Assembly: GCA_947652115.1 (NCBI GenBank) | Contig: OX393562.1 | Location: forward strand, 23,573,576-23,637,575 | Length of the DNA stretch: 64,000 nucleotides | Reading direction: 5' to 3' | Source: Blastomussa wellsi | Taxonomy: Eukaryota; Cnidaria; Anthozoa; Scleractinia; Plerogyridae | In this document: piece by piece, positions 31,904 to 64,000 of the stretch | How positions within the stretch are numbered: the stretch's first letter is position 1 | Layout of the letters: the number at the start of each line of letters is the position of its first letter | The notes under the pieces: generated by a model | Told to the model about the DNA's origin: nothing | Database searches by the model: none | What the model saw: the letters and a program-made list of their open reading frames with translations, nothing else | Made by a program: the position numbers and the translations under genes

Positions 31904-31941
<38 letters not shown>

Positions 31942-32375
31942 TGACCTTGTGAAAAGACATGAGAGGTGTAGAATAAGTGGGAGCAGTTCGCTGCGCCGGT
32001 GAAATACCACTACTCTTATCGTTTTTTTACTTATTGGATGGAGCGGAGGCGAACCGCAAGGTTCACTTTCTGGACTTAAGCCGCCCCTCGCGGGAGGCGA
32101 TCCGAGTCCGAGACACCGTCAGGTTGGGAGTTTGGCTGGGGCGGCACATCTGTCAAACGATAACGCAGGTGTCCTAAGATGAGCTCAATGAGAACAGAAA
32201 TCTCATGTAAAACAAAAGGGTAAAAGCTCACTTGATTTTGATTTTCAGTACTAATACAAACCGTGAAAGCGTGGCCTATCGATCCTTTAGTCTTCAGGAG
32301 TCTTAAGCTAGAGGTGTCAGAAAAGTTACAACAGGGATAACTGGCTTGTGGCAGCCAAGCGTTCATAGCTACGTT

Positions 32376-32413
<38 letters not shown>

Positions 32414-32455
32414 CGAAGCAGAATTCGCCAAGTGATGGATTGTTCACCCACCAAT

Positions 32456-32510
<55 letters not shown>

Positions 32511-36747: not shown

Positions 36748-38090
36748 TACCTGGTTGATCCTGCCAGTAGTCATATGCTTGTCTCAAAGATTAAGCCATG
36801 CATGTCTAAGTATATAAGCACTTGTACTGTGAAACTGCGAATGGCTCATTAAATCAGTTATCGTTTATTTGATTGTACCATTACTACTTGGATAACCGTA
36901 GTAATTCTAGAGCTAATACATGCTGGAAGTCCCGACTTCTGGAAGGGATGCATTTATTAGATCAAAAACCAATGCGGGTTCCGCCCGGTTTGTTGGTGAT
37001 TCATAGTAACTGATCAAATCGCATGGCCTTGCGCTGGCGATGTTTCATTCAAATCTCTGCCCTATCAACTGTCGATGGTAAGGTAGTGGCTTGCAACGGG
37101 TGACGGAGAATTAGGGTTTGATTCCGGAAGAGGGAGCCTGAGAAACGGCTACTACATCCAAGGAAGGTAGCAGGCGTGCAAATTACCCAATCCTGACTCA
37201 GGGAGGTAGTGACAAGAAATAACAATACAGGGCTTTTCCAAGTCTTGTAATTGGAATGAGTACAACTTAAATCCTTTAACGAGGATCCATTGGAGGGCAA
37301 GTCTGGTGCCACCAGCCGCGGTAATTCCAGCTCCAATAGCGTATATTAAAGTTGTTGCAGTTAAAAAGCTCGTAGTTGGATTTCGGGATGGCTCGGTCGG
37401 TTTGCCGCAAGGTATGACTGGCCGAGCTGTTCTTCCTTGCAAAGACTGTGTGTGCTCTTAACTGAGTGTGCTCAGGATCTGCGACATTTACTTTGAAAAA
37501 ATTAGAGTGTTCAAAGCAAGCCCGTGCTTGAATACATAAGCATGGAATAATGGAATAGGACTTTGGTTCTATTTTGTTGGTTTCTGGAACCGAAGTAATG
37601 ATTGAGAGAGACAGTTGGGGGTATTCGTATTTCGTTGTCAGAGGTGAAATTCTTGGATTTACGAAAGACGAACTACTGCGAAAGCATTTGCCAAGAATGT
37701 GTTCATTAATCAAGAACGAAAGTTAGAGGATCGAAGACGATCAGATACCGTCCTAGTTCTAACCATAAACGATGCCAACTAGGGATCAGAGGGTGTTATT
37801 GGATGACCCCTTTGGCACCTTATGGGAAACCAAAGTTTTTGGGTTCCGGGGAAAGTATGGTTGCAAAGCTGAAACAACTTTAGGCGAACCGGAATAGAAG
37901 GCCCCGGCCTTCGTGCGTCCCAAGGTGCCAAGGAGGACAGCAAACTCCAAGGCACTACCGATAGCAAACTCTAACGTTTCCGGAGATAAATCCTCTGCAG
38001 ACGACTTAAATAAAGAACAGGGTATTGTAAGTTGTAGAGTAGCCTTGTTGCTACGATCTTCTGAGATTAAGCCCTTGTTCTAAGAGTTGT
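36748..38090 (+). pseudogene. 18S (nt 1-1128) fused to the last 215 nt of 28S, copy 1
   Basis: The 18S part (36748-37875) starts at the true 5' end and stops after GTTGCAAAGCTGAAAC. The 28S part (37876-38090) starts AACTTTAGGCGAACCGG and runs to the 28S end. The 18S has fixed lesions: ten bases are missing in GTAGTGGCTTGCAACGGGTG (expected ACCATGGTTG inside), the 530 loop reads GTGCCACCAGCCGCGG for GTGCCAGCAGCCGCGG (37312), and changes such as CTTCCGGGGAAAG-type substitutions occur before the break (TTCCGGGGAAAGTATGG for TTCCGGGGGGAGTATGG). Such an 18S cannot work in a ribosome. Copy 1 alone keeps ATTTACGAAAGACG where copies 2-4 have ATTTACAAAAGACG. Confidence 0.93.
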
Positions 38091-38125
38091 CAATCATCAC
38101 TTTTTTCTTCTCACCCAGCCCAATC

Positions 38126-38499
38126 AAAGGCTCCCCACACTTAGCACTTCTTCTCTGAGCTCCACTCCAAAGGCTCCCCACACTTGCGTCTCAGCCGAAC
38201 GCTAAAGGCTCCCCACTTACGTCTCAGCCTAACGCTAAAGGCTCCCCACACTTATTTCTCAGCCGAACGCTAAAGGCTCCCCACACTTATGTCTCAGCGG
38301 AACGCTAAAGGCTCCCCACAATTATGTCTCAGCGGAACGCTAAAGGCTCCCCACACTTATTTCTCAGCCGAACGCTAAAGGCTCCCAACACTTACGTCTC
38401 AGCCGAACGCTAAAGGCTCCCCAAACTTATGTCTCAGCCGAACGCTAAAGGCTCCCCACACTTTTGTCTCAGCGGAACGCTAAAGGCTCCCCACACTTA
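38126..38499 (+). repeat. 35-bp spacer repeat array, copy 2 (11 units)
   Basis: It has five units fewer than the array at 32936-33483. The missing ones come from the middle, as expected for unequal exchange. The third unit is shortened to GGCTCCCCACTTACG here and in all later arrays. Confidence 0.85.
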
Positions 38500-41400
38500 C
38501 GCCTCAAACTCTATAAGCGAGCCAAGTTTCGTGCGATTCGGATTAAACGTGGTGGTAGTTCTCCCCGTAAGAGGGGCGTCGTCGACTTCACTTACGGTTA
38601 GAAACTCAAAGAGATTTCAATGAAATCGATCGCTTTTTTCACAGGACGATTCTACGCCTCAAACTCTATAAGCGAGCCAAGTTTCGTGCGATTCGCATGA
38701 AACGGGGTGGTAGTTCTCCCCGTAAGATTCGTTTTGTCAAATTCACTTGGCTGGCAATCAGAGATTTCAATGAAATTGATCGCTTTTTTCACAGGACGAT
38801 TCTACGCCTCAAACTCTATAAGTGAGCCAAGTTTCGTGCGATTCGGATGAAACGTGGTGGTAGTTCTCCCCGTAAGAGGGGCGTGGTCTGTACTTCACTT
38901 GGCTGCCAATCAAAGAGATTTCAATGAAATCGATCGCTTTTTTAACAGGACGATTCTACGCCTCAAACTCTATAAGTTAGCCAAGTTTCGTGCGATTCGG
39001 ATGAAACGTGGTGGTAGTTCTCCCCGTAAGAGCGGTTTTTTAGGTTTCACTTGGCTGCCAATCAGAGATTTCAATCAAATTTATCGCTTTTTTTACAGGA
39101 CGATTCTACGCCTCAAACTCTATCACTGAACCAAGTTTCGTAAGATTCCGTTTACAGGTCTTGTTTTTATCGCGTTTCGCAGCATTTCGCGTCCGAAAAG
39201 ATGGGCGTGGTCGAATTCAATTGGCTGCCAATTGAAGGCGTTTGCATGAAATCAATCGCCGTTTTGACCAGCCTCTTCTACGCTTCAAACTCTATCACCG
39301 GGCCAAGTTTCGTAAGATTCCGTTCAGAGGTCTTGTTTTTATGGCGTTTCGCAGCATTTCGTGTCCGAAAAGATGGGCGTGGTCGACTTCAATTGGCTGC
39401 CAATTAAAGGCGTTTGCATGAAATCGATCGCCGTTTTGACCAGCCTCTTTTACGCTTAAAACTCTATTACCGAGCCAAGTTTCGTGAAATTCCGTTTAGA
39501 GGTCTTGATTTCATGTCGTTTCGCAGCATTTCGTGTCCAAAAGCATGGGCATCGTCGAGTTCACTTAAGCGCCAATCAAAGAGATTTCAATGAAATTGAT
39601 CGCTTTGTTCATAGGAAGATTCTACGCCTCAAACTTTATCACCGAGGCAAGTGTCGTAAGATTCCGTTAAGAGGTCTTGTTTTTATGGCGTTTCGCAGCA
39701 TTTCGTGTCCGAAAAGATGGGCGTTGTCGACTTCAAATGGCTGCCAATTGAAGGGGTTTGCATGAAATCGATCGCCGTTTTGACCTGCCTCTTCTACGCT
39801 TCAAACGCTATCTCCGAGCCAAATTTCGTAAGATGCCATTCAGAGGTCTTGTTTTTATGGCGTTTCGCAGCATTTCGTGTCGGAAAAGATGGGCGTGGTC
39901 GAATTCAATTGGCTGCCAATTGAAGGGGTTTGCATGAAATCGATCGCCGTTTTGAGCAGCGTCTTCTACGCTTCAAACGCTATCACCGAGCCAAGTTTCG
40001 TAAGATTCTATTCAGAGGTCTTGTTTTTATGGCGTTTCGCAGCATTTCGTGTCCGAAAAGATGGGCGTAATCGACTTTAATTCGCTCCCAATTGAAGGAG
40101 TTTGCATGAAATCCATCGTCGTTTTGACCAGCCTCTTCTACACGTCAAATTCTATCACCGAACTAAGTTTCGTAAAATTCCGTTAACAGGTGTTGTTTTT
40201 ATGGCGTTTCGCAGCATTTCGTGTCCGAAACGATGGGCGTGGTCGAATTAAAAAATGCTTTCGAAAAGATGGGCGTGGTCGAATTCAATTGGCTGCCAAT
40301 TGAAGGGGTTTGCATGAAATCGATCGCCGTTTTAACCAGCCTCTTCTACGCCTCAAATTCTATCACCGAGCCACGTTTCGTGAAATTCCGTTCAGAGGTC
40401 TTTTTTTTATGGCGTTTCGCAGCATTTCGTGAACGAAAAGATGGGCGTGGTCGAATTCAATTGGCTGCCAATTGAAGGGGTTTGCATGAAATCGATCGCC
40501 GTTTTGAGCAGCGTCTTCTACGCTTCAAACGCTATCACCGAGCCAAGTTTCGTAAGATTCTATTCAGAGGTCTTGTTTTTATGGCGTTTCGCAGCATTTC
40601 GTGTCCGAAAAGATGGGCGTAATCGACTTCAATTCGCTGCCAATTGAAGGAGTTTGCATGAAATCCATCGTCGTTTTGACCAGCCTCTTCTACGCGTCAA
40701 ATTCTATCACCGAACTAAGTTTCGTAAAATTCCGTTAACAGGTGTTTTTTTTATGGCGTTTCGCAGCATTTCGTGTCCGAAACGATGGGCGTGGTCGAAT
40801 TAAATTGGCTGCCAATCAAAGAGATTTCAATGAAATTTATCGCTTTTTTCACAGGACGATTCTACGTATCAAACGCTATAAGCGAGCCAATTTTTGTGAG
40901 ATTCGGAAAAACGGAGTGGTAGTTCTCCCCGTAAGAGCGGTTTTTTAGGTTTCACTTGGCTGCCAATCAGAGATTTCAATCAAATTGATCGCTTTTTTCA
41001 CAGGACGATTCTACGCCTCAAACTCTATAAGTGAGCCAAGTTTCGTGCGATTCGGATGAAACGTGGTGGTAGTTCTCCCCGTAAGAGGGGCGTGGTCTGT
41101 ACTTCACTTGGCTGCCAATCAAAGAGATTTCAATGAAATCGATCGCTTTTTTAACAGGACGATTCTACGCCTCAAACTCTATAAGTTAGCCAAGTTTCGT
41201 GCGATTCGGATGAAACGTGGTGGTAGTTCTCCCCGTAAGAGCGGTTTTTTAGGTTTCACTTGGCTGCCAATCAGAGATTTCAATAAAATTTATCGCTTTT
41301 CTTACAGGACGATTCTACGCCTCAAACTCTATCACTGAGCCAAGTTTCGTAAGATTCCGTTCACAGGTCTTGTTTTTATCGCGTTTCGCAGCATTTCGCG

Positions 41401-43781
41401 TCCGAAAAGATGGGCGTGGTCGAATTCAATTGGCTGCCAATTGAAGGCGTTTGCATGAAATCAATCGCCGTTTTGACCAGCCTCTTCTACGCTTCAAACT
41501 CTATCACCGGGCCAAGTTTCGTAAGATTCCGTTCACAGGTCTTGTTTTTATGGCGTTTCGCAGCATTTCGTGTCCGAAAAGATGGGCGTGGTCGACTTCA
41601 ATTGGCTGCCAATTAAAGGCGTTTGCATGAAATCGATCGCCGTTTTGACCAGCCTCTTTTACGCTTAAAACTCTATTACCGAGCCAAGTTTCGTGAAATT
41701 CCGTTTAGAGGTCTTGATTTCATGTCGTTTCGCAGCATTTCGTGTCCAAAAGCATGGGCATCGTCGAGTTCACTTAAGCGCCAATCAAAGAGATTTCAAT
41801 GAAATTGATCGCTTTGTTCATAGGAAGATTCTACGCCTCAAACTTTATCACCGAGCCAAGTTTCGTAAGATTCCGTTAAGAGGTCTTGTTTTTATGGCGT
41901 TTCGCAGCATTTCGTGTCCGAAAAGATGGGCGTTGTCGACTTCAAATGGCTGCCAATTGAAGGGGTTTGCATGAAATCGATCGCCGTTTTGACCTGCCTC
42001 TTCTACGCTTCAAACGCTATCTCCGAGCCAAATTTCGTAAGATTCCATTCAGAGGTCTTGTTTTTATGGCGTTTCGCAGCATTTCGTGTCCGAAAAGATG
42101 GGCGTGGTCGAATTCAATTGGCTGCCAATTGAAGGGGTTTGCATGAAATCGATCGCCGTTTTGAGCAGCGTCTTCTACGCTTCAAACGCTATCACCGAGC
42201 CAAGTTTCGTAAGATTCTATTCAGAGGTCTTGTTTTTATGGCGTTTCGCAGCATTTCGTGTCCGAAAAGATGGGCGTAATCGACTTCAATTCGCTGCCAA
42301 TTGAAGGAGTTTGCATGAAATCCATCGTCGTTTTGACCAGCCTCTTCTACGCGTCAAATTCTATCACCGAACTAAGTTTCGTAAAATTCCGTTAACAGGT
42401 CTTTTTTTTATGGCGTTTCGCAGCATTTCGTGTCCGAAACGATGGGCGTGGTCGAATTAAATTGGCTGCCAATCAAAGAGATTTCAATGAAATTTATCGC
42501 TTTTTTTACAGGACGATTCTACGTATCAAACGCTATAAGCGAGCCAATTTTTGTGAGATTCGGAAAAACGGAGTGGTAGTTCTCCCCGTAAGAGCGGTTT
42601 TTTAGGTTTCACTTGGCTGCCAATCAGAGATTTCAATCAAATTGATCGCTTTTTTAACTGGACGATTCTACGCCTCAAACTCTATCAGTGAGCCAAGTTT
42701 TGTAAGATTCCGTTCACAGGTCTTTTTTTTATCGCGTTTCGCAGCATTTCGCGTCCGAAAAGATGGGCGTGGTCGAATTCAATTGGCTGCCAATTGAAGG
42801 GGTTTGCATGAAATCGATCGCCGTTTTAACCAGCCTCTTCTACGCCTCAAATTCTATCACCGAGCCACGTTTCGTGAAATTCCGTTCAGAGGTCTTTTTT
42901 TATGGCGTTTCGCAGCATTTCGTGAACGAAAAGATGGGCGTGGTCGACTTCAATTGGCTGTCAATTGAAGGGGTTTGCATGAAGTCGATCGCCGTTTTGA
43001 GCAGCCTCTTCTACGTTTCAAACTCTATTACCGAGCCAAGTTTCGTGAAATTCCGTTTAGAGGTCTTGATTTCATGTCGTTTCGCAGCATTTCGTGTCCA
43101 AAAGCATTTCGCTTTTTTCATAGGACGATTCTACGCCTCAAACTCTATAAGGGAGCCAAGTTTCGTGCGATTCGGATGAAACGTAGTGGTAGTTCTCCCC
43201 GTAAGAGGGGCGTCGTCGACTTCACTTACGGTTAGAAACTCAAAGAGATTTCAATGAAATCGATCGCTTTTTTCACAGGACGATTCTACGCCTCAAACTC
43301 TATAAGCGAGCCAAGTTTCGTGCGATTCGGATGAAACGGGGTGGTAGTTCTCTCCGTAAGATTCGTTTTGTCAAATTCACTTGGCTGGCAATCAGAGATT
43401 TCAATGAAATTGATCGCTTTTTTCACAGGACGATTTTACGCCTCAAACTCTATAAGTGAGCCAAGTTTCGTGCGATTCGGATGAAACGTGGTGGTAGTTC
43501 TCCCCGTAAGAGGGGCGTGGTCTGTACTTCACTTGGCTGCCAATCAAAGAGATTTCAATGAAATCGATCGCTTTTTTAACAGGACGATTCTACGCCTCAA
43601 ACTCTATAAGTTAGCCAAGTTTCGTGCGATTCGGATGAAACGTGGTGGTAGTTCTCCCCGTAAGAGGGGCGTGGTCAACTTCACTTGGCTGCCAATCAAA
43701 GAGATTTCAATGAATTTCAAAAATTCTTTCACCGCTGGATTCTACGCATCAAACTGTATAAGCGTGCCAAGTTTGGTTTGA
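38500..43781 (+). repeat. 150/172-bp spacer array, copy 2 (duplicated higher-order version)
   Basis: This is about twice the length of the first array. A block of A and B units of about 2.2 kb (38854 to 41063, judged from recurring landmarks) is repeated, followed by the shared A-rich end. This block duplication accounts for most of the difference between the 7.7-kb and 5.6-kb units. Confidence 0.88.
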
Positions 43782-44411
43782 TTTGGTTGAATTTGAAAAT
43801 TTCGAGTTTCGAAATTTTTCTAAGTCCAGAGTTGATGAGATGGTGAACCATGAATTCGCGTACTTATAAGAGGGTAGGTTGCGAAGAGACTCGCTGAAGG
43901 CATGTGAACTTCACGGTTTCTCATTGTAATACCAGCCCTCTTAGGTGGTCGCGGGTACGAAATAGTGCATTTGGAGGGAAAGAGTCAAGTCCGGGCAGAC
44001 TTGCTCCGTCAGTGGGAGGCAATAAATGACACGAAGTTTGTTTGACATGGTTGTCTTTTTGGACGACCGTAACGCAGATGGTTGTTGTACGTGCTGGCCT
44101 GTGGCCATGAATAGTAGCCTATGATCCGAAGGAAACGTTCTTCCCCTAAGTAAATTGTGGACATTCCCTGTTTTCTAAGCAAAGGAATGGCCGAATGTTA
44201 CAAGGGTTGAACTGAGGCGTGGCAAAGAAAGAGTCGATTGCCGTAGCGCACTGCCAGTGCGTTGTCGGTTTTCCCTGTAGCATGAGAGAACGAAAGAGCG
44301 CACCGCCAGTGCGTTGTGGTTTTCCCTGTAGCCTGAGAGAACGAAAGAGAACGCTGGCGTCCTTCCGGCGAAGGCGCTTGCAGTAGAGCTCGTCTCTACT
44401 TGACGGAAAGT
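43782..44411 (+). promoter_or_regulatory. Promoter-like region and 5' ETS, copy 2
   Basis: The length is the same 630 bp as copy 1. The initiator-like motif lies at 43860-43874 and the ETS direct repeats at 44246-44349. Confidence 0.5.
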
Positions 44412-45754
44412 TACCTGGTTGATCCTGCCAGTAGTCATATGCTTGTCTCAAAGATTAAGCCATGCATGTCTAAGTATATAAGCACTTGTACTGTGAAACT
44501 GCGAATGGCTCATTAAATCAGTTATCGTTTATTTGATTGTACCATTACTACTTGGATAACCGTAGTAATTCTAGAGCTAATACATGCTGGAAGTCCCGAC
44601 TTCTGGAAGGGATGCATTTATTAGATCAAAAACCAATGCGGGTTCCGCCCGGTTTGTTGGTGATTCATAGTAACTGATCAAATCGCATGGCCTTGCGCTG
44701 GCGATGTTTCATTCAAATCTCTGCCCTAACAACTGTCGATGGTAAGGTAGTGGCTTGCAACGGGTGACGGAGAATTAGGGTTTGATTCCGGAAGAGGGAG
44801 CCTGAGAAACGGCTACTACATCCAAGGAAGGTAGCAGGCGTGCAAATTACCCAATCCTGACTCAGGGAGGTAGTGACAAGAAATAACAATACAGGGCTTT
44901 TCCAAGTCTTGTAATTGGAATGAGTACAACTTAAATCCTTTAACGAGGATCCATTGGAGGGCAAGTCTGGTGCCACCAGCCGCGGTAATTCCAGCTCCAA
45001 TAGCGTATATTAAAGTTGTTGCAGTTAAAAAGCTCGTAGTTGGATTTCGGGATGGCTCGGTCGGTTTGCCGCAAGGTATGACTGGCCGAGCTGTTCTTCC
45101 TTGCAAAGACTGTGTGTGCTCTTAACTGAGTGTGCTCAGGATCTGCGACATTTACTTTGAAAAAATTAGAGTGTTCAAAGCAAGCCCGTGCTTGAATACA
45201 TAAGCATGGAATAATGGAATAGGACTTTGGTTCTATTTTGTTGGTTTCTGGAACCGAAGTAATGATTGAGAGAGACAGTTGGGGGTATTCGTATTTCGTT
45301 GTCAGAGGTGAAATTCTTGGATTTACAAAAGACGAACTACTGCGAAAGCATTTGCCAAGAATGTGTTCATTAATCAAGAACGAAAGTTAGAGGATCGAAG
45401 ACGATCAGATACCGTCCTAGTTCTAACCATAAACGATGCCAACTAGGGATCAGAGGGTGTTATTGGATGACCCCTTTGGCACCTTATGGGAAACCAAAGT
45501 TTTTGGGTTCCGGGGAAAGTATGGTTGCAAAGCTGAAACAACTTTAGGCGAACCGGAATGGAAGGCCCCGGCCTTCGTGCGTCCCAAGGTGCCAAGGAGG
45601 ACAGCAAACTCCAAGGCACTACCGATAGCAAACTCTAACGTTTCCGGAGATAAATCCTCTGCAGACGACTTAAATAAAGAACAGGGTATTGTAAGTTGTA
45701 GAGTAGCCTTGTTGCTACGATCTTCTGAGATTAAGCCCTTGTTCTAAGAGTTGT
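44412..45754 (+). pseudogene. 18S-28S chimera, copy 2
   Basis: The 18S part is 44412-45539 and the 28S part 45540-45754, with the same junction and lesions as copy 1. Private differences include CCCTAACAACTG for CCCTATCAACTG (about 44728) and GGAATGGAAGG for GGAATAGAAGG in the 28S part. Confidence 0.93.
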
Positions 45755-45789
45755 CAATCATCACTTTTTTCTTCTCACCCAGCCCAATC

Positions 45790-46338
45790 AAAGGCTCCCC
45801 ACACTTAGCACTTCTTCTCTGAGCTCCACTCCAAAGGCTCCCCACACTTGCGTCTCAGCCGAACGCTAAAGGCTCCCCACTTACGTCTCAGCCTAACGCT
45901 AAAGGCTCCCCACACTTATTTCTCAGCCGAACGCTAAAGGCTCCCCACACTTATGTCTCAGCCGAACGCTAAAGGCTCCCCACAATTATGTCTCAGCGGA
46001 ACGCTAAAGGCTCCCCACACTTATTTCTCAGCCGAACGCTAAAGGCTCCCCACACTTACGTCTCAGCCGAACGCTAAAGGCTCCCCACACTTACGTCTCA
46101 GCCGAACGCTAAAGGCTCCCCACACTTACGTCTCAGCGAAACGTTAAAGGCTCCCCACACTTACGTGTCAGCCTAACGCTAAAGGCTCCCCACACTTATT
46201 TCTCAGCCGAACGCTAAAGGCTCCCCACACTTACGTGTCAGCCGAACGCTAAAGGCTCCCCAAACTTATGTCTCAGCCGAACGCTAAAGGCTCCCCACAC
46301 TTTTGTCTCAGCGGAACGCTAAAGGCTCCCCACACTTA
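45790..46338 (+). repeat. 35-bp spacer repeat array, copy 3 (16 units)
   Basis: This has the same unit order as the first 16-unit array, except for the shortened third unit and a few point changes. Confidence 0.85.
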
Positions 46339-49300
46339 CGCCTCAAACTCTATAAGCGAGCCAAGTTTCGTGCGATTCGGATTAAACGTGGTGGTAGTTC
46401 TCCCCGTAAGAGGGGCGTCGTCGACTTCACTTACGGTTAGAAACTCAAAGAGATTTCAATGAAATCGATCGCTTTTTTCACAGGACGATTCTACGCCTCA
46501 AACTCTATAAGCGAGCCAAGTTTCGTGCGATTCGGATGAAACGGGGTGGTAGTTCTCCCCGTAAGATTCGTTTTGTCAAATTCACTTGGCTGGCAATCAG
46601 AGATTTCAATGAAATTGATCGCTTTTTTCACAGGACGATTCTACGCCTCAAACTCTATAAGTTAACCAAGTTTCGTGCGATTCGGATGAAACGTGGTGGT
46701 AGTTCTCCCCGTAAGAGCGGTTTTTTAGGTTTCACTTGGCTGCCAATCAGAGATTTCAATCAAATTTATCGCTTTTCTTACAGGACGATTCTACGCCTCA
46801 AACTCTATCACTGAGCCAAGTTTCGTATGATTCTACGCTTCAAACTCTATCACCGGGCCAAGTTTCGTAAGATTCCGTTCACAGGTCTTGTTTTTATGGC
46901 GTTTCGCAGCATTTCGTGTCCGAAAAGATGGGCGTGGTCGACTTCAATTGGCTGCCAATTAAAGGCGTTTGCATGAAATCGATCGCCGTTTTGACCAGCC
47001 TCTTTTACGCTTAAAACTCTATTACCGAGCCAAGGTTCGTGAAATTCCGTTTAGAGGTCTTGATTTCATGTCGTTTCGCAGGATTTCGTGTCCAAAAGCA
47101 TGGGCATCGTCGAGTTCACTTAAGCGCCAATCAAAGAGATTTCAATGAAATTGATCGCTTTGTTCATAGGAAGATTCTACGCCTCAAACTTTATCACCGA
47201 GCCAAGTTTCGTAAGATTCCGTTAAGAGGTCTTGTTTTTATGGCGTTTCGCAGCATTTCGTGTCCGAAAAGATGGGCGTTGTCGACTTCAAATGGCTGCC
47301 AATTGAAGGGGTTTGCATGAAATCGATCGCCGTTTTGACCTGCCTCTTCTACGCTTCAAACGCTATCTCCGAGCTAAATTTCGTAAGATTCCATTCAGAG
47401 GTCTTGTTTTTATGGCGTTTCGCAGCATTTCGTGTCCGAAAAGATGGGCGTGGTCGAATTCAATTGGCTGCCAATTGAAGGGGTTTGCATGAAATCGATC
47501 GCCGTTTTGAGCAGCGTCTTCTACGCTTCAAACGCTATCACCGAGCCAAGTTTCGTAAGATTCTATTCAGAGGTCTTGTTTTTATGGCGTTTCGCAGCAT
47601 TTCGTGTCCGAAAAGATGGGCGTAATCGACTTCAATTCGCTGCCAATTGAAGGAGTTTGCATGAAATCCATCGTCGTTTTGACCAGCCTCTTCTACGCGT
47701 CAAATTCTATCACCGAACTAAGTTTCGTAAAATTCCGTTAACAGGTGTTGTTTTTATGGCGTTTCGCAGCATTTCGTGTCCGAAACGATGGGCGTGGTCG
47801 AATTAAATTGGCTGCCAATCAAAGAGATTTCAATGAAATTTATCGCTTTTTTCACAGGACGATTCTACGTATCAAACACTATAAGCGAGCCAATTTTTGT
47901 GAGATTCGGAAAAACGGAGTGGTAGTTCTCCCCGTAAGAGCGGTTTTTTAGGTTTCACTTGGCTGCCAATCAGAGATTTCAATCAAATTGATCGCTTTTT
48001 TAACTGGACGATTCTACGCCTCAAACTCTATCAGTGAGCCAAGTTTTGTAAGATTCCGTTCACAGGTCTTTTTTTTATCGCGTTTCGCAGCATTTCGCGT
48101 CCGAAAAGATGGGCGTGGTCGAATTCAATTGGCTGCCAATTGAAGGGGTTTGCATGAAATCGATCGCCGTTTTAACCAGCCTCTTCTACGCCTCAAATTC
48201 TATCACCGAGCCACGTTTCGTGAAATTCCGTTCAGAGGTCTTTTTTTTATGGCGTTTCGCAGCATTTCGTGAACGAAAAGATGGGCGTGGTCGACTTCAA
48301 TTGGCTGTCAATTGAAGGGGTTTGCATGAAGTCGATCGCCGTTTTGACCAGCCTCTTCTACGTTTAAAACTCTATTACCGAGCCAAGTTTCGTGAAATTC
48401 CGTTTAGAGGTCTTGATTTCATGTCGTTTCGCAGCATTTCGTGTCCAAAAGCATTTCGCTTTTTTCATAGGACGATTCTACGCCTCAAACTCTATAAGGG
48501 AGCCAAGTTTCGTGCGATTCGGATGAAACGTGGTGGTAGTTCTCCCCGTAAGAGGGGCGTCGTCGACTTCACTTACGGTTAGAAACTCAAAGAGATTTCA
48601 ATGAAATCGATCGCTTTTTTCACAGGACGATTCTACGCCTCAAACTCTATAAGCGAGCCAAGTTTCGTGCGATTCGGATGAAACGGGGTGGTAGTTCTCC
48701 CCGTAAGATTCGTTTTGTCAAATTCACTTGGCTGGCAATCAGAGATTTCAATGAAATTGATCGCTTTTTTCACAGGACGATTCTACGCCTCAAACTCTAT
48801 AAGTGAGCCAAGTTTCGTGCGATTCGGATGAAACGTGGTGGTAGTTCTCCCCGTAAGAGGGGCGTGGTCTGTACTTCACTTGGCTGCCAATCAAAGAGAT
48901 TTCAATGAAATCGATCGCTTTTTTAACAGGACGATTCTACGCCTCAAACTCTATAAGTTAGCCAAGTTTCGTGCGATTCGGATGAAACGTGGTGGTAGTT
49001 CTCCCCGTAAGAGCGGTTTTTTAGGTTTCACTTGGCTGCCAATCAGAGATTTCAATCAAATTTATCGCTTTTCTTACAGGACGATTCTACGCCTCAAACT
49101 CTATCACTGAGCCAAGTTTCGTAAGATTCCGTTCACAGGTCTTGTTTTTATCGCGTTTCGCAGCATTTCGCGTCCGAAAAGATGGGCGTGGTCGAATTCA
49201 ATTGGCTGCCAATTGAAGGCGTTTGCATGAAATCAATCGCCGTTTTGACCAGCCTCTTCTACGCTTCAAACTCTATCATCACCGGGCCAAGTTTCGTAAG

Positions 49301-51556: not shown

Positions 51557-52186
51557 TTTGGTTGAATTTGAAAATTTCGAGTTTCGAAATTTTTCTAAGT
51601 CCAGAGTTGATGAGATGGTGAACCATGAATTCGCGTACTTATAAGAGGGTAGGTTGCGAAGAGACTCGCTGAAGGCATGTGAACTTCACGGTTTCTCATT
51701 GTAATACCAGCCCTCTTAGGTGGTCGCGGGTACGAAATAGTGCATTTGGAGGGAAAGAGTCAAGTCCGGGCAGACTTGCTCCGTCAGTGGGAGGCAATAA
51801 ATGACACGAAGTTTGTTTGACATGGTTGTCTTTTTGGACGACCGTAACGCAGATGGTTGTTGTACGTGCTGGCCTGTGGCCATGAATAGTAGCCTATGAT
51901 CCGAAGGAAACGTTCTTCCCCTAAGTAAATTGTGGACATTCCCTGTTTTCTAAGCAAAGGAATGGCCGAATGTTACAAGGGTTGAACTGAGGCGTGGCAA
52001 AGAAAGAGTCGATTGCCGTAGCGCACTGCCAGTGCGTTGTCGGTTTTCCCTGTAGCATGAGAGAACGAAAGAGCGCACCGCCAGTGCGTTGTGGTTTTCC
52101 CTGTAGCCTGAGAGAACGAAAGAGAACGCTGGCGTCCTTCCGGCGAAGGCGCTTGCAGTAGAGCTCGTCTCTACTTGACGGAAAGT
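51557..52186 (+). promoter_or_regulatory. Promoter-like region and 5' ETS, copy 3
   Basis: The initiator-like motif lies at 51635-51649 and the ETS direct repeats at 52021-52124. Confidence 0.5.
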
Positions 52187-53529: not shown

Positions 53530-53564
53530 CAATCATCACTTTTTTCTTCTCACCCAGCCCAATC

Positions 53565-54078
53565 AAAGGCTCCCCACACTTAGCACTTCTTCTCTGAGCT
53601 CCACTCCAAAGGCTCCCCACACTTGCGTCTCAGCCGAACGCTAAAGGCTCCCCACTTACGTCTCAGCCTAACGCTAAAGGCTCCCCACACTTATTTCTCA
53701 GCCGAACGCTAAAGGCTCCCCACACTTATGTCTCAGCGGAGCGCTAAAGGCTCCCCACAATTATGTCTCAGCGGAACGCTAAAGGCTCCCCACACTTATT
53801 TCTCAGCCGAACGCTAAAGGCTCCCCACACTTACGTCTCAGCCGAACGCTAAAGGCTCCCCACACTTACGTCTCAGCGAAACGTTAAAGGCTCCCCACAC
53901 TTACGTGTCAGCCTAACGCTAAAGGCTCCCCACACTTATTTCTCAGCCGAACGCTAAAGGCTCCCCACACTTACGTGTCAGCCGAACGCTAAAGGCTCCC
54001 CAAACTTATGTCTCAGCCGAACGCTAAAGGCTCCCCACACTTTTGTCTCAGCGGAACGCTAAAGGCTCCCCACACTTA
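53565..54078 (+). repeat. 35-bp spacer repeat array, copy 4 (15 units)
   Basis: This carries AGCGGAGCGCT in one unit, a change shared with the next array and not found in earlier ones. Confidence 0.85.
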
Positions 54079-57000
54079 CGCCTCAAACTCTATAAGCGAG
54101 CCAAGTTTCGTGCGATTCGGATTAAACGTGGTGGTAGTTCTCCCCGTAAGAGGGGCGTCGTCGACTTCACTTACGGTTAGAAACTCAAAGAGATTTCAAT
54201 GAAATCGATCGCTTTTTTCACAGGACGATTCTACGCCTCAAACTCTATAAGCGAGCCAAGTTTCGTGCGATTCGGATGAAACGGGGTGGTAGTTCTTCCC
54301 GTAAGATTCGTTTTGTCAAATTCACTTGGCTGGCAATCAGAGATTTCAATGAAATTGATCGCTTTTTTCACAGGACGATTCTACGCCTCAAACTCTATAA
54401 GTGAGCCAAGTTTCGTGCGATTCGGATGAAACGTGGTGGTAGTTCTCCCCGTAAGAGGGGCGTGGTCTGTACTTCACTTGGCTGCCAATCAAAGAGATTT
54501 CAATGAAATCGATCGCTTTTTTAACAGGACGATTCTACGCCTCAAACTCTATAAGTTAGCCAAGTTTCGTGCGATTCGGATGAAACGTGGTGGTAGTTCT
54601 CCCCGTAAGAGCGGTTTTTTAGGTTTCACTTGGCTGCCAATCAGAGATTTCAATCAAATTTATCGCTTTTCTTACAGGACGATTCTACGCCTCAAACTCT
54701 ATCACTGAGCCAAGTTTCGTAAGATTCCGTTCACAGGTCTTGTTTTTATCGCGTTTCGCAGCATTTCGCGTCCGAAAAGATGGGCGTGGTCGAATTCAAT
54801 TGGCTGCCAATTGAAGGCGTTTGCATGAAATCAATCGCCGTTTTGACCAGCCTCTTCTACGCTTCAAACTCTATCATCACCGGGCCAAGTTTCGTAAGAT
54901 TCCGTTCACAGGTCTTGTTTTTATGGCGTTTCGCAGCATTTCGTGTCCGAAAAGATGGGCGTGGTCGACTTCAATTGGCTGCCAATTAAAGGCGTTTGCA
55001 TGAAATCGATCGCCGTTTTGACCAGCCTCTTTTACGCTTAAAACTCTATTACCGAGCCAAGTTTCGTGAAATTCCGTTTAGAGGTCTTGATTTCATGTCG
55101 TTTCGCAGCATTTCGTGTCCAAAAGCATGGGCATCGTCGAGTTCACTTAAGCGCCAATCAAAGAGATTTCAATGAAATTGATCGCTTTGTTCATAGGAAG
55201 ATTCTACGCCTCAAACTTTATCACCGAGCCAAGTTTCGTAAGATTCCGTTAAGAGGTCTTGTTTTTATGGCGTTTCGCAGCATTTCGTGTCCGAAAAGAT
55301 GGGCGTTGTCGACTTCAAATGGCTGCCAATTGAAGGGGTTTGCATGAAATCGATCGCCGTTTTGACCTGCCTCTTCTACGCTTCAAACGCTATCTCCGAG
55401 CCAAATTTCGTAAGATTCCATTCAGAGGTCTTGTTTTTATGGCGTTTCGCAGCATTTCGTGTCCGAAAAGATGGGCGTGGTCGAATTCAATTGGCTGCCA
55501 ATTGAAGGGGTTTGCATGAAATCGATCGCCGTTTTGAGCAGCGTCTTCTACGCTTCAAACGCTATCACCGAGCCAAGTTTCGTAAGATTCTATTCAGAGG
55601 TCTTGTTTTTATGGCGTTTCGCAGCATTTCGTGTCCGAAAAGATGGGCGTAATCGACTTCAATTCGCTGCCAATTGAAGGAGTTTGCATGAAATCCATCG
55701 TCGTTTTGACCAGCCTCTTCTACGCGTCAAATTCTATCACCGAACTAAGTTTCGTAAAATTCCGTTAACAGGTGTTGTTTTTATGGCGTTTCGCAGCATT
55801 TCGTGTCCGAAACGATGGGCGTGGTCGAATTAAATTGGCTGCCAATCAAAGAGATTTCAATGAAATTTTTCGCTTTTTTCACAGGACGATTCTACGTATC
55901 AAACACTATAAGCGAGCCAATTTTTGTGAGATTCGGAAAAACGGAGTGGTAGTTCTCCCCGTAAGAGCGGTTTTTTAGGTTTCACTTGGCTGCCAATCAG
56001 AGATTTCAATCAAATTGATCGCTTTTTTAACTGGACGATTCTACGCCTCAAACTCTATCAGTGAGCCAAGTTTTGTAAGATTCCGTTCACAGGTCTTTTT
56101 TTTATCGCGTTTCGCAGCATTTCGCGTCCGAAAAGATGGGCGTGGTCGAATTCAATTGGCTGTCAATTGAAGGGGTTTGCATGAAATCGATCGCCGTTTT
56201 AACCAGCCTCTTCTACGCCTCAAATTCTATCACCGAGCCACGTTTTGTGAAATTCCGTTCAGAGGTCTTTTTTTTTAATGGCGTTTCGCAGCATTTCGTG
56301 AACGAAAAGATGGGCGTGGTCGACTTCAATTGGCTGTCAATTGAAGGGGTTTGCATGAAGTCGATCGCCGTTTTGACCAGCCTCTTCTACGTTTCAAACT
56401 CTATTACCGAGCCAAGTTTCGTGAAATTCCGTTTAGAGGTCTTGATTTCATGTCGTTTCGCAGCATTTCGTGTCCAAAAGCATTTCGCTTTTTTCATAGG
56501 ACGATTCTACGCCTCAAACTCTATAAGGGAGCCAAGTTTCGTGCGATTCGGATGAAACGTGGTGGTAGTTCTCCCCGTAAGAGGGGCGTCGTCGACTTCA
56601 CTTACGGTTAGAAACTCAAAGAGATTTCAATGAAATCGATCGCTTTTTTAACAGGACGATTCTACGCGTCAAACTCTATAAGCGAGCCAAGTTTCGTGCG
56701 ATTCGGATGAAACGGGGTGGTAGTTCTCCCCGTAAGATTCGTTTTGTCAAATTCACTTGGCTGGCAATCAGAGATTTCAATGAAATTGATCGCTTTTTTC
56801 ACAGGACGATTCTACGCCTCAAAGTCTATAAGTGAGCCAAGTTTCGTGCGATTCGGATGAAACGTGGTGGTAGTTCTCCCCGTAAGAGGGGCGTGGTCTG
56901 TACTTCACTTGGCTGCCAATCAAAGAGATTTCAATGAAATCGATCGCTTTTTTAACAGGACGATTCTACGCCTCAAACTCTATAAGTTAGCCAAGTTTCG

Positions 57001-57157
57001 TGCGATTCGGATGAAACGTGGTGGTAGTTCTCCCCGTAAGAGGGGCGTGGTCAACTTCACTTGGCTGCCAATCAAAGAGATTTCAATAAATTTCAAAAAT
57101 TCTTTCACCGCTGGATTCTACGCATCAAACTGTATAAGCGTGCCAAGTTTGGTTTGA
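54079..57157 (+). repeat. 150/172-bp spacer array, copy 4 (single higher-order block)
   Basis: This is the basic, non-duplicated arrangement A-B-A. It carries the ATC insertion (about 54873) and TTTTTTTTAATGGCG near 56270, both shared with the following unit. Confidence 0.88.
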
Positions 57158-57787
57158 TTTGGTTGAATTTGAAAATTTCGAGTTTCGAAATTTTTCTAAG
57201 TCCAGAGTTGATGAGATGGTGAACCATGAATTCGCGTACTTATAAGAGGGTAGGTTGCGAAGAGACTCGCTGAAGGCATGTGAACTTCACGGTTTCTCAT
57301 TGTAATACCAGCCCTCTTAGGTGGTCGCGGGTACGAAATAGTGCATTTGGAGGGAAAGAGTCAAGTCCGGGCAGACTTGCTCCGTCAGTGGGAGGCAATA
57401 AATGACACGAAGTTTGTTTGACATGGTTGTCTTTTTGGACGACCGTAACGCAGATGGTTGTTGTACGTGCTGGCCTGTGGCCATGAATAGTAGCCTATGA
57501 TCCGAAGGAAACGTTCTTCCCCTAAGTAAATTGTGGACATTCCCTGTTTTCTAAGCAAAGGAATGGCCGAATGTTACAAGGGTTGAACTGAGGCGTGGCA
57601 AAGAAAGAGTCGATTGCCGTAGCGCACTGCCAGTGCGTTGTCGGTTTTCCCTGTAGCATGAGAGAACGAAAGAGCGCACCGCCAGTGCGTTGTGGTTTTC
57701 CCTGTAGCCTGAGAGAACGAAAGAGAACGCTGGCGTCCTTCCGGCGAAGGCGCTTGCAGTAGAGCTCGTCTCTACTTGACGGAAAGT
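57158..57787 (+). promoter_or_regulatory. Promoter-like region and 5' ETS, copy 4
   Basis: The initiator-like motif lies at 57236-57250 and the ETS direct repeats at 57622-57725. Confidence 0.5.
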
Positions 57788-59130
57788 TACCTGGTTGATC
57801 CTGCCAGTAGTCATATGCTTGTCTCAAAGATTAAGCCATGCATGTCTAAGTATATAAGCACTTGTACTGTGAAACTGCGAATGGCTCATTAAATCAGTTA
57901 TCGTTTATTTGATTGTACCATTACTACTTGGATAACCGTAGTAATTCTAGAGCTAATACATGCTGGAAGTCCCGACTTCTGGAAGGGATGCATTTATTAG
58001 ATCAAAAACCAATGCGGGTTCCGCCCGGTTTGTTGGTGATTCATAGTAACTGATCAAATCGCATGGCCTTGCGCTGGCGATGTTTCATTCAAATCTCTGC
58101 CCTATCAACTGTCGATGGTAAGGTAGTGGCTTGCAACGGGTGACGGAGAATTAGGGTTTGATTCCGGAAGAGGGAGCCTGAGAAACGGCTACTACATCCA
58201 AGGAAGGTAGCAGGCGTGCAAATTACCCAATCCTGACTCAGGGAGGTAGTGACAAGAAATAACAATACAGGGCTTTTCCAAGTCTTGTAATTGGAATGAG
58301 TACAACTTAAATCCTTTAACGAGGATCCATTGGAGGGCAAGTCTGGTGCCACCAGCCGCGGTAATTCCAGCTCCAATAGCGTATATTAAAGTTGTTGCAG
58401 TTAAAAAGCTCGTAGTTGGATTTCGGGATGGCTCGGTCGGTTTGCCGCAAGGTATGACTGGCCGAGCTGTTCTTCCTTGCAAAGACTGTGTGTGCTCTTA
58501 ACTGAGTGTGCTCAGGATCTGCGACATTTACTTTGAAAAAATTAGAGTGTTCAAAGCAAGCCCGTGCTTGAATACATAAGCATGGAATAATGGAATAGGA
58601 CTTTGGTTCTATTTTGTTGGTTTCTGGAACCGAAGTAATGATTGAGAGAGACAGTTGGGGGTATTCGTATTTCGTTGTCAGAGGTGAAATTCTTGGATTT
58701 ACAAAAGACGAACTACTGCGAAAGCATTTGCCAAGAATGTGTTCATTAATCAAGAACGAAAGTTAGAGGATCGAAGACGATCAGATACCGTCCTAGTTCT
58801 AACCATAAACGATGCCAACTAGGGATCAGAGGGTGTTATTGGATGACCCCTTTGGCACCTTATGGGAAACCAAAGTTTTTGGGTTCCGGGGAAGTATGGT
58901 TGCAAAGCTGAAACAACTTTAGGCGAACCGGAATAGAAGGCCCCGGCCTTCGTGCGTCCCAAGGTGCCAAGGAGGACAGCAAACTCCAAGGCACTACCGA
59001 TAGCAAACTCCTAACGTTTCCGGAGATAAATCCTCTGCAGACGACTTAAATAAAGAACAGGGTATTGTAAGTTGTAGAGTAGCCTTGTTGCTACGATCTT
59101 CTGAGATTAAGCCCTTGTTCTAAGAGTTGT
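57788..59130 (+). pseudogene. 18S-28S chimera, copy 4
   Basis: The 18S part is 57788-58914, one base shorter (GGGGAAGTATGG), and the 28S part is 58915-59130, one base longer (AAACTCCTAACG). Otherwise it is as in copy 3. Confidence 0.93.
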
Positions 59131-59165
59131 CAATCATCACTTTTTTCTTCTCACCCAGCCCAATC

Positions 59166-59679
59166 AAAGGCTCCCCACACTTAGCACTTCTTCTCTGAGC
59201 TCCACTCCAAAGGCTCCCCACACTTGCGTCTCAGCCGAACGCTAAAGGCTCCCCACTTACGTCTCAGCCTAACGCTAAAGGCTCCCCACACTTATTTCTC
59301 AGCCGAACGCTAAAGGCTCCCCACACTTATGTCTCAGCGGAGCGCTAAAGGCTCCCCACAATTATGTCTCAGCGGAACGCTAAAGGCTCCCCACACTTAT
59401 TTCTCAGCCGAACGCTAAAGGCTCCCCACACTTACGTCTCAGCCGAACGCTAAAGGCTCCCCACACTTACGTCTCAGCGAAACGTTAAAGGCTCCCCACA
59501 CTTACGTGTCAGCCTAACGCTAAAGGCTCCCCACACTTATTTCTCAGCCGAACGCTAAAGGCTCCCCACACTTACGTGTCAGCCGAACGCTAAAGGCTCC
59601 CCAAACTTATGTCTCAGCCGAACGCTAAAGGCTCCCCACACTTTTGTCTCAGCGGAACGCTAAAGGCTCCCCACACTTA
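59166..59679 (+). repeat. 35-bp spacer repeat array, copy 5 (15 units)
   Basis: Appears identical to the array at 53565-54078 by eye. Confidence 0.85.
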
Positions 59680-62600
59680 CGCCTCAAACTCTATAAGCGA
59701 GCCAAGTTTCGTGCGATTCGGATTAAACGTGGTGGTAGTTCTCCCCGTAAGAGGGGCGTCGTCGACTTCACTTACGGTTAGAAACTCAAAGAGATTTCAA
59801 TGAAATCGATCGCTTTTTTCACAGGACGATTCTACGCCTCAAACTCTATAAGCGAGCCAAGTTTCGTGCGATTCGGATGAAACGGGGTGGTAGTTCTTCC
59901 CGTAAGATTCGTTTTGTCAAATTCACTTGGCTGGCAATCAGAGATTTCAATGAAATTGATCGCTTTTTTCACAGGACGATTCTACGCCTCAAACTCTATA
60001 AGTGAGCCAAGTTTCGTGCGATTCGGATGAAACGTGGTGGTAGTTCTCCCCGTAAGAGGGGCGTGGTCTGTACTTCACTTGGCTGCCAATCAAAGAGATT
60101 TCAATGAAATCGATCGCTTTTTTAACAGGACGATTCTACGCCTCAAACTCTATAAGTTAGCCAAGTTTCGTGCGATTCGGATGAAACGTGGTGGTAGTTC
60201 TCCCCGTAAGAGCGGTTTTTTAGGTTTCACTTGGCTGCCAATCAGAGATTTCAATCAAATTTATCGCTTTTCTTACAGGACGATTCTACGCCTCAAACTC
60301 TATCACTGAGCCAAGTTTCGTAAGATTCCGTTCACAGGTCTTGTTTTTATCGCGTTTCGCAGCATTTCGCGTCCGAAAAGATGGGCGTGGTCGAATTCAA
60401 TTGGCTGCCAATTGAAGGCGTTTGCATGAAATCAATCGCCGTTTTGACCAGCCTCTTCTACGCTTCAAACTCTATCATCACCGGGCCAAGTTTCGTAAGA
60501 TTCCGTTCACAGGTCTTGTTTTTATGGCGTTTCGCAGCATTTCGTGTCCGAAAAGATGGGCGTGGTCGACTTCAATTGGCTGCCAATTAAAGGCGTTTGC
60601 ATGAAATCGATCGCCGTTTTGACCAGCCTCTTTTACGCTTAAAACTCTATTACCGAGCCAAGTTTCGTGAAATTCCGTTTAGAGGTCTTGATTTCATGTC
60701 GTTTCGCAGCATTTCGTGTCCAAAAGCATGGGCATCGTCGAGTTCACTTAAGCGCCAATCAAAGAGATTTCAATGAAATTGATCGCTTTGTTCATAGGAA
60801 GATTCTACGCCTCAAACTTTATCACCGAGCCAAGTTTCGTAAGATTCCGTTAAGAGGTCTTGTTTTTATGGCGTTTCGCAGCATTTCGTGTCCGAAAAGA
60901 TGGGCGTTGTCGACTTCAAATGGCTGCCAATTGAAGGGGTTTGCATGAAATCGATCGCCGTTTTGACCTGCCTCTTCTACGCTTCAAACGCTATCTCCGA
61001 GCCAAATTTCGTAAGATTCCATTCAGAGGTCTTGTTTTTATGGCGTTTCGCAGCATTTCGTGTCCGAAAAGATGGGCGTGGTCGAATTCAATTGGCTGCC
61101 AATTGAAGGGGTTTGCATGAAATCGATCGCCGTTTTGAGCAGCGTCTTCTACGCTTCAAACGCTATCACCGAGCCAAGTTTCGTAAGATTCTATTCAGAG
61201 GTCTTGTTTTTATGGCGCTTCTCAGCATTTCGTGTCCGAAAAGATAGGCGTAATCGACTTCAATTCGCTGCCAATTGAAGGAGTTTGCATGAAATCCATC
61301 GTCGTTTTGACCAGCCTCTTCTACGCGTCAAATTCTATCACCGAACTAAGTTTCGTAAAATTCCGTTAACAGGTGTTGTTTTTATGGCGTTTCGCAGCAT
61401 TTCGTGTCCGAAACGATGGGCGTGGTCGAATTAAATTGGCTGCCAATCAAAGAGATTTCAATGAAATTTTTCGCTTTTTTCACAGGACGATTCTACGTAT
61501 CAAACACTATAAGCGAGCCAATTTTTGTGAGATTCGGAAAAACGGAGTGGTAGTTCTCCCCGTAAGAGCGGTTTTTTAGGTTTCACTTGGCTGCCAATCA
61601 GAGATTTCAATCAAATTGATCGCTTTTTTAACTGGACGATTCTACGCCTCAAACTCTATCAGTGAGCCAAGTTTTGTAAGATTCCGTTCACAGGTCTTTT
61701 TTTTATCGCGTTTCGCAGCATTTTGCGTCCGAAAAGATGGGCGTGGTCGAATTCAATTGGCTGTCAATTGAAGGGGTTTGCATGAAATCGATCGCCGTTT
61801 TAACCAGCCTCTTCTACGCCTCAAATTCTATCACCGAGCCACGTTTTGTGAAATTCCGTTCAGAGGTCTTTTTTTTTAATGGCGTTTCGCAGCATTTCGT
61901 GAACGAAAAGATGGGCGTGGTCGACTTCAATTGGCTGTCAATTGAAGGGGTTTGCATGAAGTCGATCGCCGTTTTGACCAGCCTCTTCTACGTTTCAAAC
62001 TCTATTACCGAGCCAAGTTTCGTGAAATTCCGTTTAGAGGTCTTGATTTCATGTCGTTTCGCAGCATTTCGTGTCCAAAAGCATTTCGCTTTTTTCATAG
62101 GACGATTCTACGCCTCAAACTCTATAAGGGAGCCAAGTTTCGTGCGATTCGGATGAAACGTGGTGGTAGTTCTCCCCGTAAGAGGGGCGTCGTCGACTTC
62201 ACTTACGGTTAGAAACTCAAAGAGATTTCAATGAAATCGATCGCTTTTTTAACAGGACGATTCTACGCGTCAAACTCTATAAGCGAGCCAAGTTTCGTGC
62301 GATTCGGATGAAACGGGGTGGTAGTTCTCCCCGTAAGATTCGTTTTGTCAAATTCACTTGGCTGGCAATCAGAGATTTCAATGAAATTGATCGCTTTTTT
62401 CACAGGACGATTCTACGCCTCAAAGTCTATAAGTGAGCCAAGTTTCGTGCGATTCGGATGAAACGTGGTGGTAGTTCTCCCCGTAAGAGGGGCGTGGTCT
62501 GTACTTCACTTGGCTGCCAATCAAAGAGATTTCAATGAAATCGATCGCTTTTTTAACAGGACGATTCTACGCCTCAAACTCTATAAGTTAGCCAAGTTTC

Positions 62601-62758
62601 GTGCGATTCGGATGAAACGTGGTGGTAGTTCTCCCCGTAAGAGGGGCGTGGTCAACTTCACTTGGCTGCCAATCAAAGAGATTTCAATAAATTTCAAAAA
62701 TTCTTTCACCGCTGGATTCTACGCATCAAACTGTATAAGCGTGCCAAGTTTGGTTTGA
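59680..62758 (+). repeat. 150/172-bp spacer array, copy 5
   Basis: Same length as the preceding array (3079 bp). By eye the differences are few: GGCGCTTCTCAGC for GGCGTTTCGCAGC (about 61217), AGATAGGCG for AGATGGGCG (about 61244) and CATTTTGCG for CATTTCGCG (about 61722). Confidence 0.88.
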
Positions 62759-63388
62759 TTTGGTTGAATTTGAAAATTTCGAGTTTCGAAATTTTTCTAA
62801 GTCCAGAGTTGATGAGATGGTGAACCATGAATTCGCGTACTTATAAGAGGGTAGGTTGCGAAGAGACTCGCTGAAGGCATGTGAACTTCACGGTTTCTCA
62901 TTGTAATACCAGCCCTCTTAGGTGGTCGCGGGTACGAAATAGTGCATTTGGAGGGAAAGAGTCAAGTCCGGGCAGACTTGCTCCGTCAGTGGGAGGCAAT
63001 AAATGACACGAAGTTTGTTTGACATGGTTGTCTTTTTGGACGACCGTAACGCAGATGGTTGTTGTACGTGCTGGCCTGTGGCCATGAATAGTAGCCTATG
63101 ATCCGAAGGAAACGTTCTTCCCCTAAGTAAATTGTGGACATTCCCTGTTTTCTAAGCAAAGGAATGGCCGAATGTTACAAGGGTTGAACTGAGGCGTGGC
63201 AAAGAAAGAGTCGATTGCCGTAGCGCACTGCCAGTGCGTTGTCGGTTTTCCCTGTAGCATGAGAGAACGAAAGAGCGCACCGCCAGTGCGTTGTGGTTTT
63301 CCCTGTAGCCTGAGAGAACGAAAGAGAACGCTGGCGTCCTTCCGGCGAAGGCGCTTGCAGTAGAGCTCGTCTCTACTTGACGGAAAGT
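62759..63388 (+). promoter_or_regulatory. Promoter-like region and 5' ETS, copy 5
   Basis: The initiator-like motif lies at 62837-62851 and the ETS direct repeats at 63223-63326. Confidence 0.5.
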
Positions 63389-64000
63389 TACCTGGTTGAT
63401 CCTGCCAGTAGTCATATGCTTGTCTCAAAGATTAAGCCATGCATGTCTAAGTATATAAGCACTTGTACTGTGAAACTGCGAATGGCTCATTAAATCAGTT
63501 ATCGTTTATTTGATTGTACCATTACTACTTGGATAACCGTAGTAATTCTAGAGCTAATACATGCTGGAAGTCCCGACTTCTGGAAGGGATGCATTTATTA
63601 GATCAAAAACCAATGCGGGTTCCGCCCGGTTTGTTGGTGATTCATAGTAACTGATCAAATCGCATGGCCTTGCGCTGGCGATGTTTCATTCAAATCTCTG
63701 CCCTATCAACTGTCGATGGTAAGGTAGTGGCTTGCAACGGGTGACGGAGAATTAGGGTTTGATTCCGGAAGAGGGAGCCTGAGAAACGGCTACTACATCC
63801 AAGGAAGGTAGCAGGCGTGCAAATTACCCAATCCTGACTCAGGGAGGTAGTGACAAGAAATAACAATACAGGGCTTTTCCAAGTCTTGTAATTGGAATGA
63901 GTACAACTTAAATCCTTTAACGAGGATCCATTGGAGGGCAAGTCTGGTGCCACCAGCCGCGGTAATTCCAGCTCCAATAGCGTATATTAAAGTTGTTGCA
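63389..64000 (+). pseudogene. 18S fragment, copy 5, cut by the window end
   Basis: This is the first 612 nt of the 18S part. It carries the same 10-base deletion and 530-loop change (GTGCCACCAGCC near 63947), so it belongs to the same amplified family. Whether it too ends in a 28S fusion cannot be seen. Confidence 0.9.

What the first reader, a model, noticed from the sequence alone, without database searches (positions are those of the whole stretch)
36748..64000. Natural Pol I minigene array: 18S 5' domain fused to the 28S 3' end, amplified in tandem
Four complete units and a fifth partial one lack the end of 18S, ITS1, 5.8S, ITS2 and about 3.4 kb of 28S. They keep promoter-like sequence, the 5' ETS, a true 18S 5' end, a true 28S 3' end and the terminator-like repeats. 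Such a unit has what Pol I initiation and 3' end formation need and would give a chimeric RNA of about 1.9 kb. I know of rDNA pseudogenes and orphons, but not of a satellite with this exact architecture. It could act as a decoy for Pol I factors, as a source of siRNA/piRNA against rDNA, as nucleolus-associated heterochromatin, or simply as selfish spacer-driven amplification.
Basis: partly seen in the sequence, partly recalled or inferred. Interest (0 to 1): 0.88.

Follow-up and report, generated by a model that had tools for sequence, protein, structure and literature searches.

The report
Decayed ribosomal-gene fragment array, mid-chromosome
A broken copy of an animal's ribosomal RNA gene, with its middle missing, sits repeated head-to-tail in the middle of a chromosome; it is real, but its mutations look like those of a dead relic rather than of a working mini-gene.

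Summary
Four complete units and a fifth partial one in the window fuse the first 1128 nt of 18S bluntly to the last 213 nt of 28S. In the host genome (368 Mb) the locus runs past the window: eight such units, then a ninth, less deleted unit. Non-rDNA lies on both sides, in the middle of a 36-Mb contig.

The 'Pol I minigene' reading is weak. All eight units share 18S lesions that two other copies of the same genome lack: a 9-nt deletion of one helix strand, a 1-nt insertion and a change in the 530 loop. Substitutions fall on conserved and variable 18S sites alike. Some units carry further deletions. Inner units are nearly identical and the last fused unit most different, as unequal exchange predicts.

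The left border is telling. rDNA starts exactly 28 nt before an R2 element, where R2 ribozymes of other animals cut. An aberrant R2 insertion may have joined rDNA to foreign DNA there.

Verdict: an orphan, degenerate rDNA array, a new variant of rDNA-derived tandem repeats. Transcription is untested and the species is not identified.

The parts
28268..28295 (+). 28 nt of 28S directly 5' of the R2 element; left edge of rDNA, preceded by non-rDNA
   Evidence: Read; native 28S continues upstream of the same 28 nt at C10 but not here
28296..31789 (+). R2 element at the standard 28S insertion site; its open frames (28508-29065, 28974-30356, 30317-31534) lie in different frames, so it looks broken
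   Evidence: RVT_1 E 2.4e-21 in 28974-30356; frames; one CCHH zinc-finger pattern in the first frame
31790..32898 (+). 28S 3' part, 1109 nt, downstream of R2
   Evidence: Rfam RF02543
32899..36747 (+). Spacer: 35-bp, about 150-bp and about 172-bp repeats, then a non-repetitive block before 18S (promoter/5' ETS by position only)
36748..38088 (+). Fused unit 1: 18S 1-1128 (to 37875) + last 213 nt of 28S
38089..44411 (+). Spacer and pre-18S block
44412..45752 (+). Fused unit 2
45753..52186 (+). Spacer and pre-18S block
52187..53527 (+). Fused unit 3
53528..57787 (+). Spacer and pre-18S block
57788..59128 (+). Fused unit 4 (1-nt deletion in 18S, 1-nt insertion in 28S part)
59129..63388 (+). Spacer and pre-18S block
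63389..64000 (+). Start of fused unit 5; continues past the window to 64729, then units 6-8 and the less deleted unit 9, rDNA ending near 92067

Best explanation
This is an orphan, degenerate rDNA locus. A piece of rDNA with an R2 element at its left edge lies at a non-rDNA site in the middle of a chromosome (shown). The R2 begins at position -28 of 28S, so its cDNA end was probably joined to foreign DNA (inferred). One unit lost everything between 18S position 1128 and the last 213 nt of 28S by a blunt join (sequence shown, end-joining inferred). Unequal exchange through the spacer repeats then multiplied the deleted unit to eight copies and made them alike (inferred from the identity gradient). 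The rRNA parts decay without visible constraint. Any transcript would be a by-product without function (inferred; not tested).
For: Non-rDNA on both sides. Eight fused units plus a less deleted ninth. Three 18S lesions present in 8 of 8 fused units and absent from unit 9 and C19. Substitutions relative to C19 at 5 of 281 conserved and 5 of 342 variable sites, Fisher p 0.76. 18S change 1.73% against an ETS divergence of 3.62%, the half-rate expected if only the relic's 18S drifts. Unit-specific 11-nt and 16-nt deletions in units 7 and 8. Units 3 and 5 identical over 5601 bp, units 3-7 at least 99.78% alike, unit 8 96.57-97.09% to the others. Fused units share derived 28S changes with the left-edge 28S. 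3 of 4 R2 5' ends read start at -28 without native 28S before them.
Against: The block before 18S is kept (96% of aligned sites equal to C19), so transcription is possible. Substitution numbers are small and C19 is only partly readable and not proven functional. The first 342 nt of 18S are identical between unit 9 and unit 3, so exchange blurs the history. No Rfam ribozyme match at the R2 5' end, and a border at -28 could be chance.
Confidence: 0.78

Rival explanations
1. A natural Pol I minigene array: each unit initiates at a retained promoter, makes an 18S-28S chimeric RNA of about 1.9 kb and ends near the spacer repeats, acting as a decoy for Pol I factors or as a source of small RNAs.
Against: Shared lesions and no sign of constraint on the rRNA parts; further deletions in single units. 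A test for copies of the promoter block in the spacer repeats was negative: 480 of 500 shuffles reached the score.
Confidence: 0.06
2. Assembly artefact: intact rDNA units wrongly collapsed or joined.
For: No intact rDNA unit was found in the readable assembly with three probes, so the main array may be missing; unit 4 has single-base indels.
Against: The same blunt junction recurs in 8 units with different spacer lengths, and the 18S part carries lesions absent from unit 9 and C19. The copy number alone could be wrong.
Confidence: 0.08
3. Remnant of a former nucleolus organiser that died in place, the R2 at the edge being incidental.
For: Unit 9 and the left-edge 28S look like remains of fuller units; R2-bearing rDNA pieces occur on several contigs, and at C10 R2 sits in a 28S piece with native sequence upstream.
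Against: rDNA ends exactly at -28 of the R2 site, and the same end abuts non-rDNA at C8.
Confidence: 0.3

Closest known systems
rDNA spacer repeats kept without most rRNA sequence on Drosophila simulans-clade Y chromosomes (PMC8794474, passages; Lohe and Roberts 1990 seen only as cited)
   Same: Tandem rDNA spacer outlives the rRNA genes, outside an active array
   Different: Here a fused 18S-28S piece stays in each unit; the passages describe no such fused unit
rDNA fragments amplified into satellite-like arrays and R2-linked degeneration of rDNA units in Lepidoptera (PMC10257491, passages)
   Same: R2 in rDNA units, spacer satellites, degeneration of units
   Different: Passages seen describe no fused 18S-28S unit; that paper favours satellites over mobile elements for rDNA spread
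R2 5' junctions and ribozyme cleavage at -28 (PMC3774820, passages; PMC3414825, passages, for template jumps)
   Same: The 28 nt of 28S before R2 match the -28 cleavage site of several animals
   Different: There the junctions are within rDNA; here the -28 end abuts non-rDNA and cleavage was not tested

Membership tests
rRNA pseudogene / rDNA orphon | Lies apart from the main array with non-rDNA on both sides | tested here: met
   where the main array lies was not found
rRNA pseudogene / rDNA orphon | Incomplete and mutated at conserved positions | tested here: met
rRNA pseudogene / rDNA orphon | Not transcribed into functional rRNA | not testable with these tools
   no RNA data; a unit without the 18S 3' part and most of 28S cannot give full rRNA
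rDNA-derived tandem repeat (satellite-like) | Head-to-tail copies kept alike by exchange | tested here: met
rDNA-derived tandem repeat (satellite-like) | Large copy number or several loci | tested here: not met
   8 fused units at one place; no other exact junction in the searched assembly (exact matches only)
Functional Pol I minigene | rRNA parts under constraint | tested here: not met
   small numbers
Functional Pol I minigene | Promoter active, chimeric RNA made | not testable with these tools
   no RNA or chromatin data
R2 retrotransposon (left-edge element) | Reverse transcriptase, inserted at the R2 site of 28S | tested here: met
R2 retrotransposon (left-edge element) | Single CCHH zinc finger, as PMC5035012 gives for clade R2D | tested here: inconclusive
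   one pattern match in one frame; no tree was made
R2 retrotransposon (left-edge element) | HDV-like ribozyme at the 5' end | tested here: inconclusive
   no Rfam match at E up to 10; the -28 start fits published sites

The most novel reading that the evidence does not exclude
A live natural Pol I minigene array: R2-made breaks seeded an ectopic rDNA locus whose deleted units still fire their promoter and make a chimeric 18S-28S RNA that acts on Pol I or feeds a small-RNA pathway against rDNA.
Probability: 0.06. Interest if true: 0.85.

Novelty: new variant of a known kind. Interest (0 to 1): 0.42.

Why it matters
It is a clean case of rDNA decay outside the main array: one deletion spread by exchange while lesions accumulate. 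The left border and other R2 ends in the same genome suggest that R2 retrotransposition can join rDNA to foreign sites, a testable route for the open question of how rDNA loci move. It also shows that an assembly can hold chimeric 18S-28S sequence that could mislead rRNA annotation.

Tried and rejected
Considered and rejected: (1) a working minigene, because of shared lesions and no sign of constraint; (2) copies of the promoter block in the spacer repeats, because 480 of 500 shuffles reached the score (block shuffle, one repeat stretch tested); (3) spread of R2+28S pieces by reverse transcription alone, because the C10 copy has native 28S upstream and no poly(A) tail was seen by eye at the 3' ends printed.

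Led nowhere: the junction pattern in viral and GTDB contigs, 0 matches each (the window's own or very near genomes may be left out there); native 18S and 28S patterns in viral contigs, 0 matches each. A protein search with the R2 reverse transcriptase frame gave 289 hits, 120 listed, few of them named, so the species was not identified; that the 18S looks cnidarian- or sponge-like is from memory only. Paper searches with no match; with one paper each; listings only. Relatives' genomes were not compared (none held for this genome).

Rows dropped before counts: short matches (60 or 70 nt and less) in the prints; loci of the array itself (L044, L051-L058); sites past the first 626 nt of 18S, because the alignment shown was cut.

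Full report
WHAT IS THERE. The window carries tandem units in which 18S positions 1-1128 are joined to the last 213 nt of 28S. The host genome is held: 367,841,132 bases in 124 contigs, the window being C2:23573576-23637575. Reading on shows eight fused units, with 18S starts at window coordinates 36748, 44412, 52187, 57788, 63389, 68990, 77018 and 82607. A ninth unit at 89013 has about 895 nt of 18S, then 5.8S (89989), the 28S start (90324), a second deletion, and 28S again from 91175 to 91966. About 100 bp of spacer follows and rDNA ends near 92067. On the left rDNA ends at 28268. The locus is 63.8 kb long (C2:23601843-23665642) on a 36.2-Mb contig. The junction is exact in 7 places, all here; unit 2 has one substitution within the pattern.

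THE JUNCTION. Sequence across both native break points is present in the same genome: 18S in a C5 fragment (L028) and 28S at C10. The join is blunt with no shared base, which fits end-joining (inference).

DECAY. In 8 of 8 fused units the 18S part lacks 9 nt that form one strand of a helix, has one extra A, and has a changed base in the 530 loop (the name of the loop is recalled). Unit 9 and a copy at C19:19174315 lack these three lesions, though unit 9 has changes of its own. In the first 626 nt of unit 1, substitutions relative to C19 hit 5 of 281 conserved and 5 of 342 variable model sites (Fisher p = 0.76); at one of the five conserved sites C19, not unit 1, departs from the consensus. Over the readable 878 nt of C19, unit 3 has 15 substitutions in 867 aligned sites and 4 indels; the block before 18S has 25 in 690 and 5 indels. 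If both lineages drift in that block and only the relic drifts in 18S, 18S should change at half the rate, 1.8%; it is 1.7%. Units 7 and 8 have 11-nt and 16-nt deletions of their own in 18S. The numbers are small, and C19 is only partly readable and not proven functional.

HOMOGENISATION. Units 3 and 5 are identical over 5601 bp. Units 3-7 are 99.78-100% alike, units 1 and 2 99.3-99.7% to units 3-7, and unit 8 96.57-97.09% to the rest, gaps left out. Spacers between fused units range from 4257 to 6687 bp by repeat number. This is the pattern of unequal exchange with less exchange at an edge. Of three derived 28S changes in units 1 and 3, all are shared with the left-edge 28S; unit 8 has two of them (units 1, 3 and 8 compared). 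So the deletion arose among copies close to this locus.

LEFT BORDER. The first rDNA is exactly 28 nt of 28S before an R2 element at the standard R2 site. In passages of PMC3774820, R2 ribozymes of several animals cut 28 nt upstream of the insertion site. I read three more R2 5' ends; with the window that is 4 of the 20 match rows. At C8:9642 the -28 end abuts non-rDNA after a run of T. At C1:18012 it abuts 28S from downstream of another R2 copy. At C10 native 28S continues upstream. So 3 of 4 start at -28 without native 28S before them. I infer that -28 is the end of R2 RNA here and that the array's left border is an R2 cDNA end joined to foreign DNA. No Rfam ribozyme match was found, so the ribozyme itself is not shown. 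How a one-ended R2 event would carry several units to a new site is not explained; insertion of a broken extrachromosomal rDNA piece is one guess.

OTHER rDNA IN THE ASSEMBLY. The 28S 3' probe gave 35 matches; 10 start at the R2 site, and 9 of these 10 have R2 directly upstream, the window's own included; the tenth shows no R2 match in the short readable stretch before it. Three probes (18S, 28S 3' part, 5.8S plus 28S 5' part) gave no intact unit. The search skips very common words and some stretches read N, so the main array may be missing, unreadable or overlooked.

WHAT IT DOES. Most likely nothing: a relic copied by exchange between spacer repeats. The block before 18S is kept, so stray Pol I transcription is possible but untested.

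KNOWN OR NEW. Drosophila Y chromosomes that kept rDNA spacer repeats while losing most rRNA sequence are the nearest precedent (PMC8794474, passages; PMC7919458, passages, cites the same 1990 paper). [quoted passage not shown] In what I saw of my nine paper searches (titles and abstract starts, plus passages of six papers) no 18S 5'-28S 3' fused tandem unit was described; the library is limited to open papers. I file it as a new variant of rDNA-derived tandem repeats.

Noticed in passing
C8:9594555-9655486 of the window's genome (outside the window): Ten R2 5' ends on the minus strand spaced 6715-6719 bp apart: R2 seems to be part of a separate 6.7-kb tandem repeat. In the one unit read, R2 starts at -28 next to non-rDNA with a T run.
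   Followed up: partly
L040-L043, L045, L047, L050, L064 (contigs C5, C10, C1, C8, C9, C2): R2 elements followed by 28S stretches of differing length, some running into the 35-bp spacer repeats, scattered over several contigs.
   Followed up: partly
L047 and L050 (C9:14570726-14574901): Two R2 3' parts in tandem, each followed by a different length of 28S (256 and 410 nt).
   Followed up: no
L037 and L038 (C12:9475001-9495000): Older rDNA pseudogene pieces (18S about 82-87% identical, a full-length 5.8S match, 28S start) on both strands.
   Followed up: no
   Followed up: no
window 5847-5919 (-), 12458-12874 (+), 23425-23721 (+): Left flank holds a tRNA-Thr and open frames that look like a cyclin-dependent kinase exon and an oxygenase exon (read by eye, not searched).
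   Followed up: no
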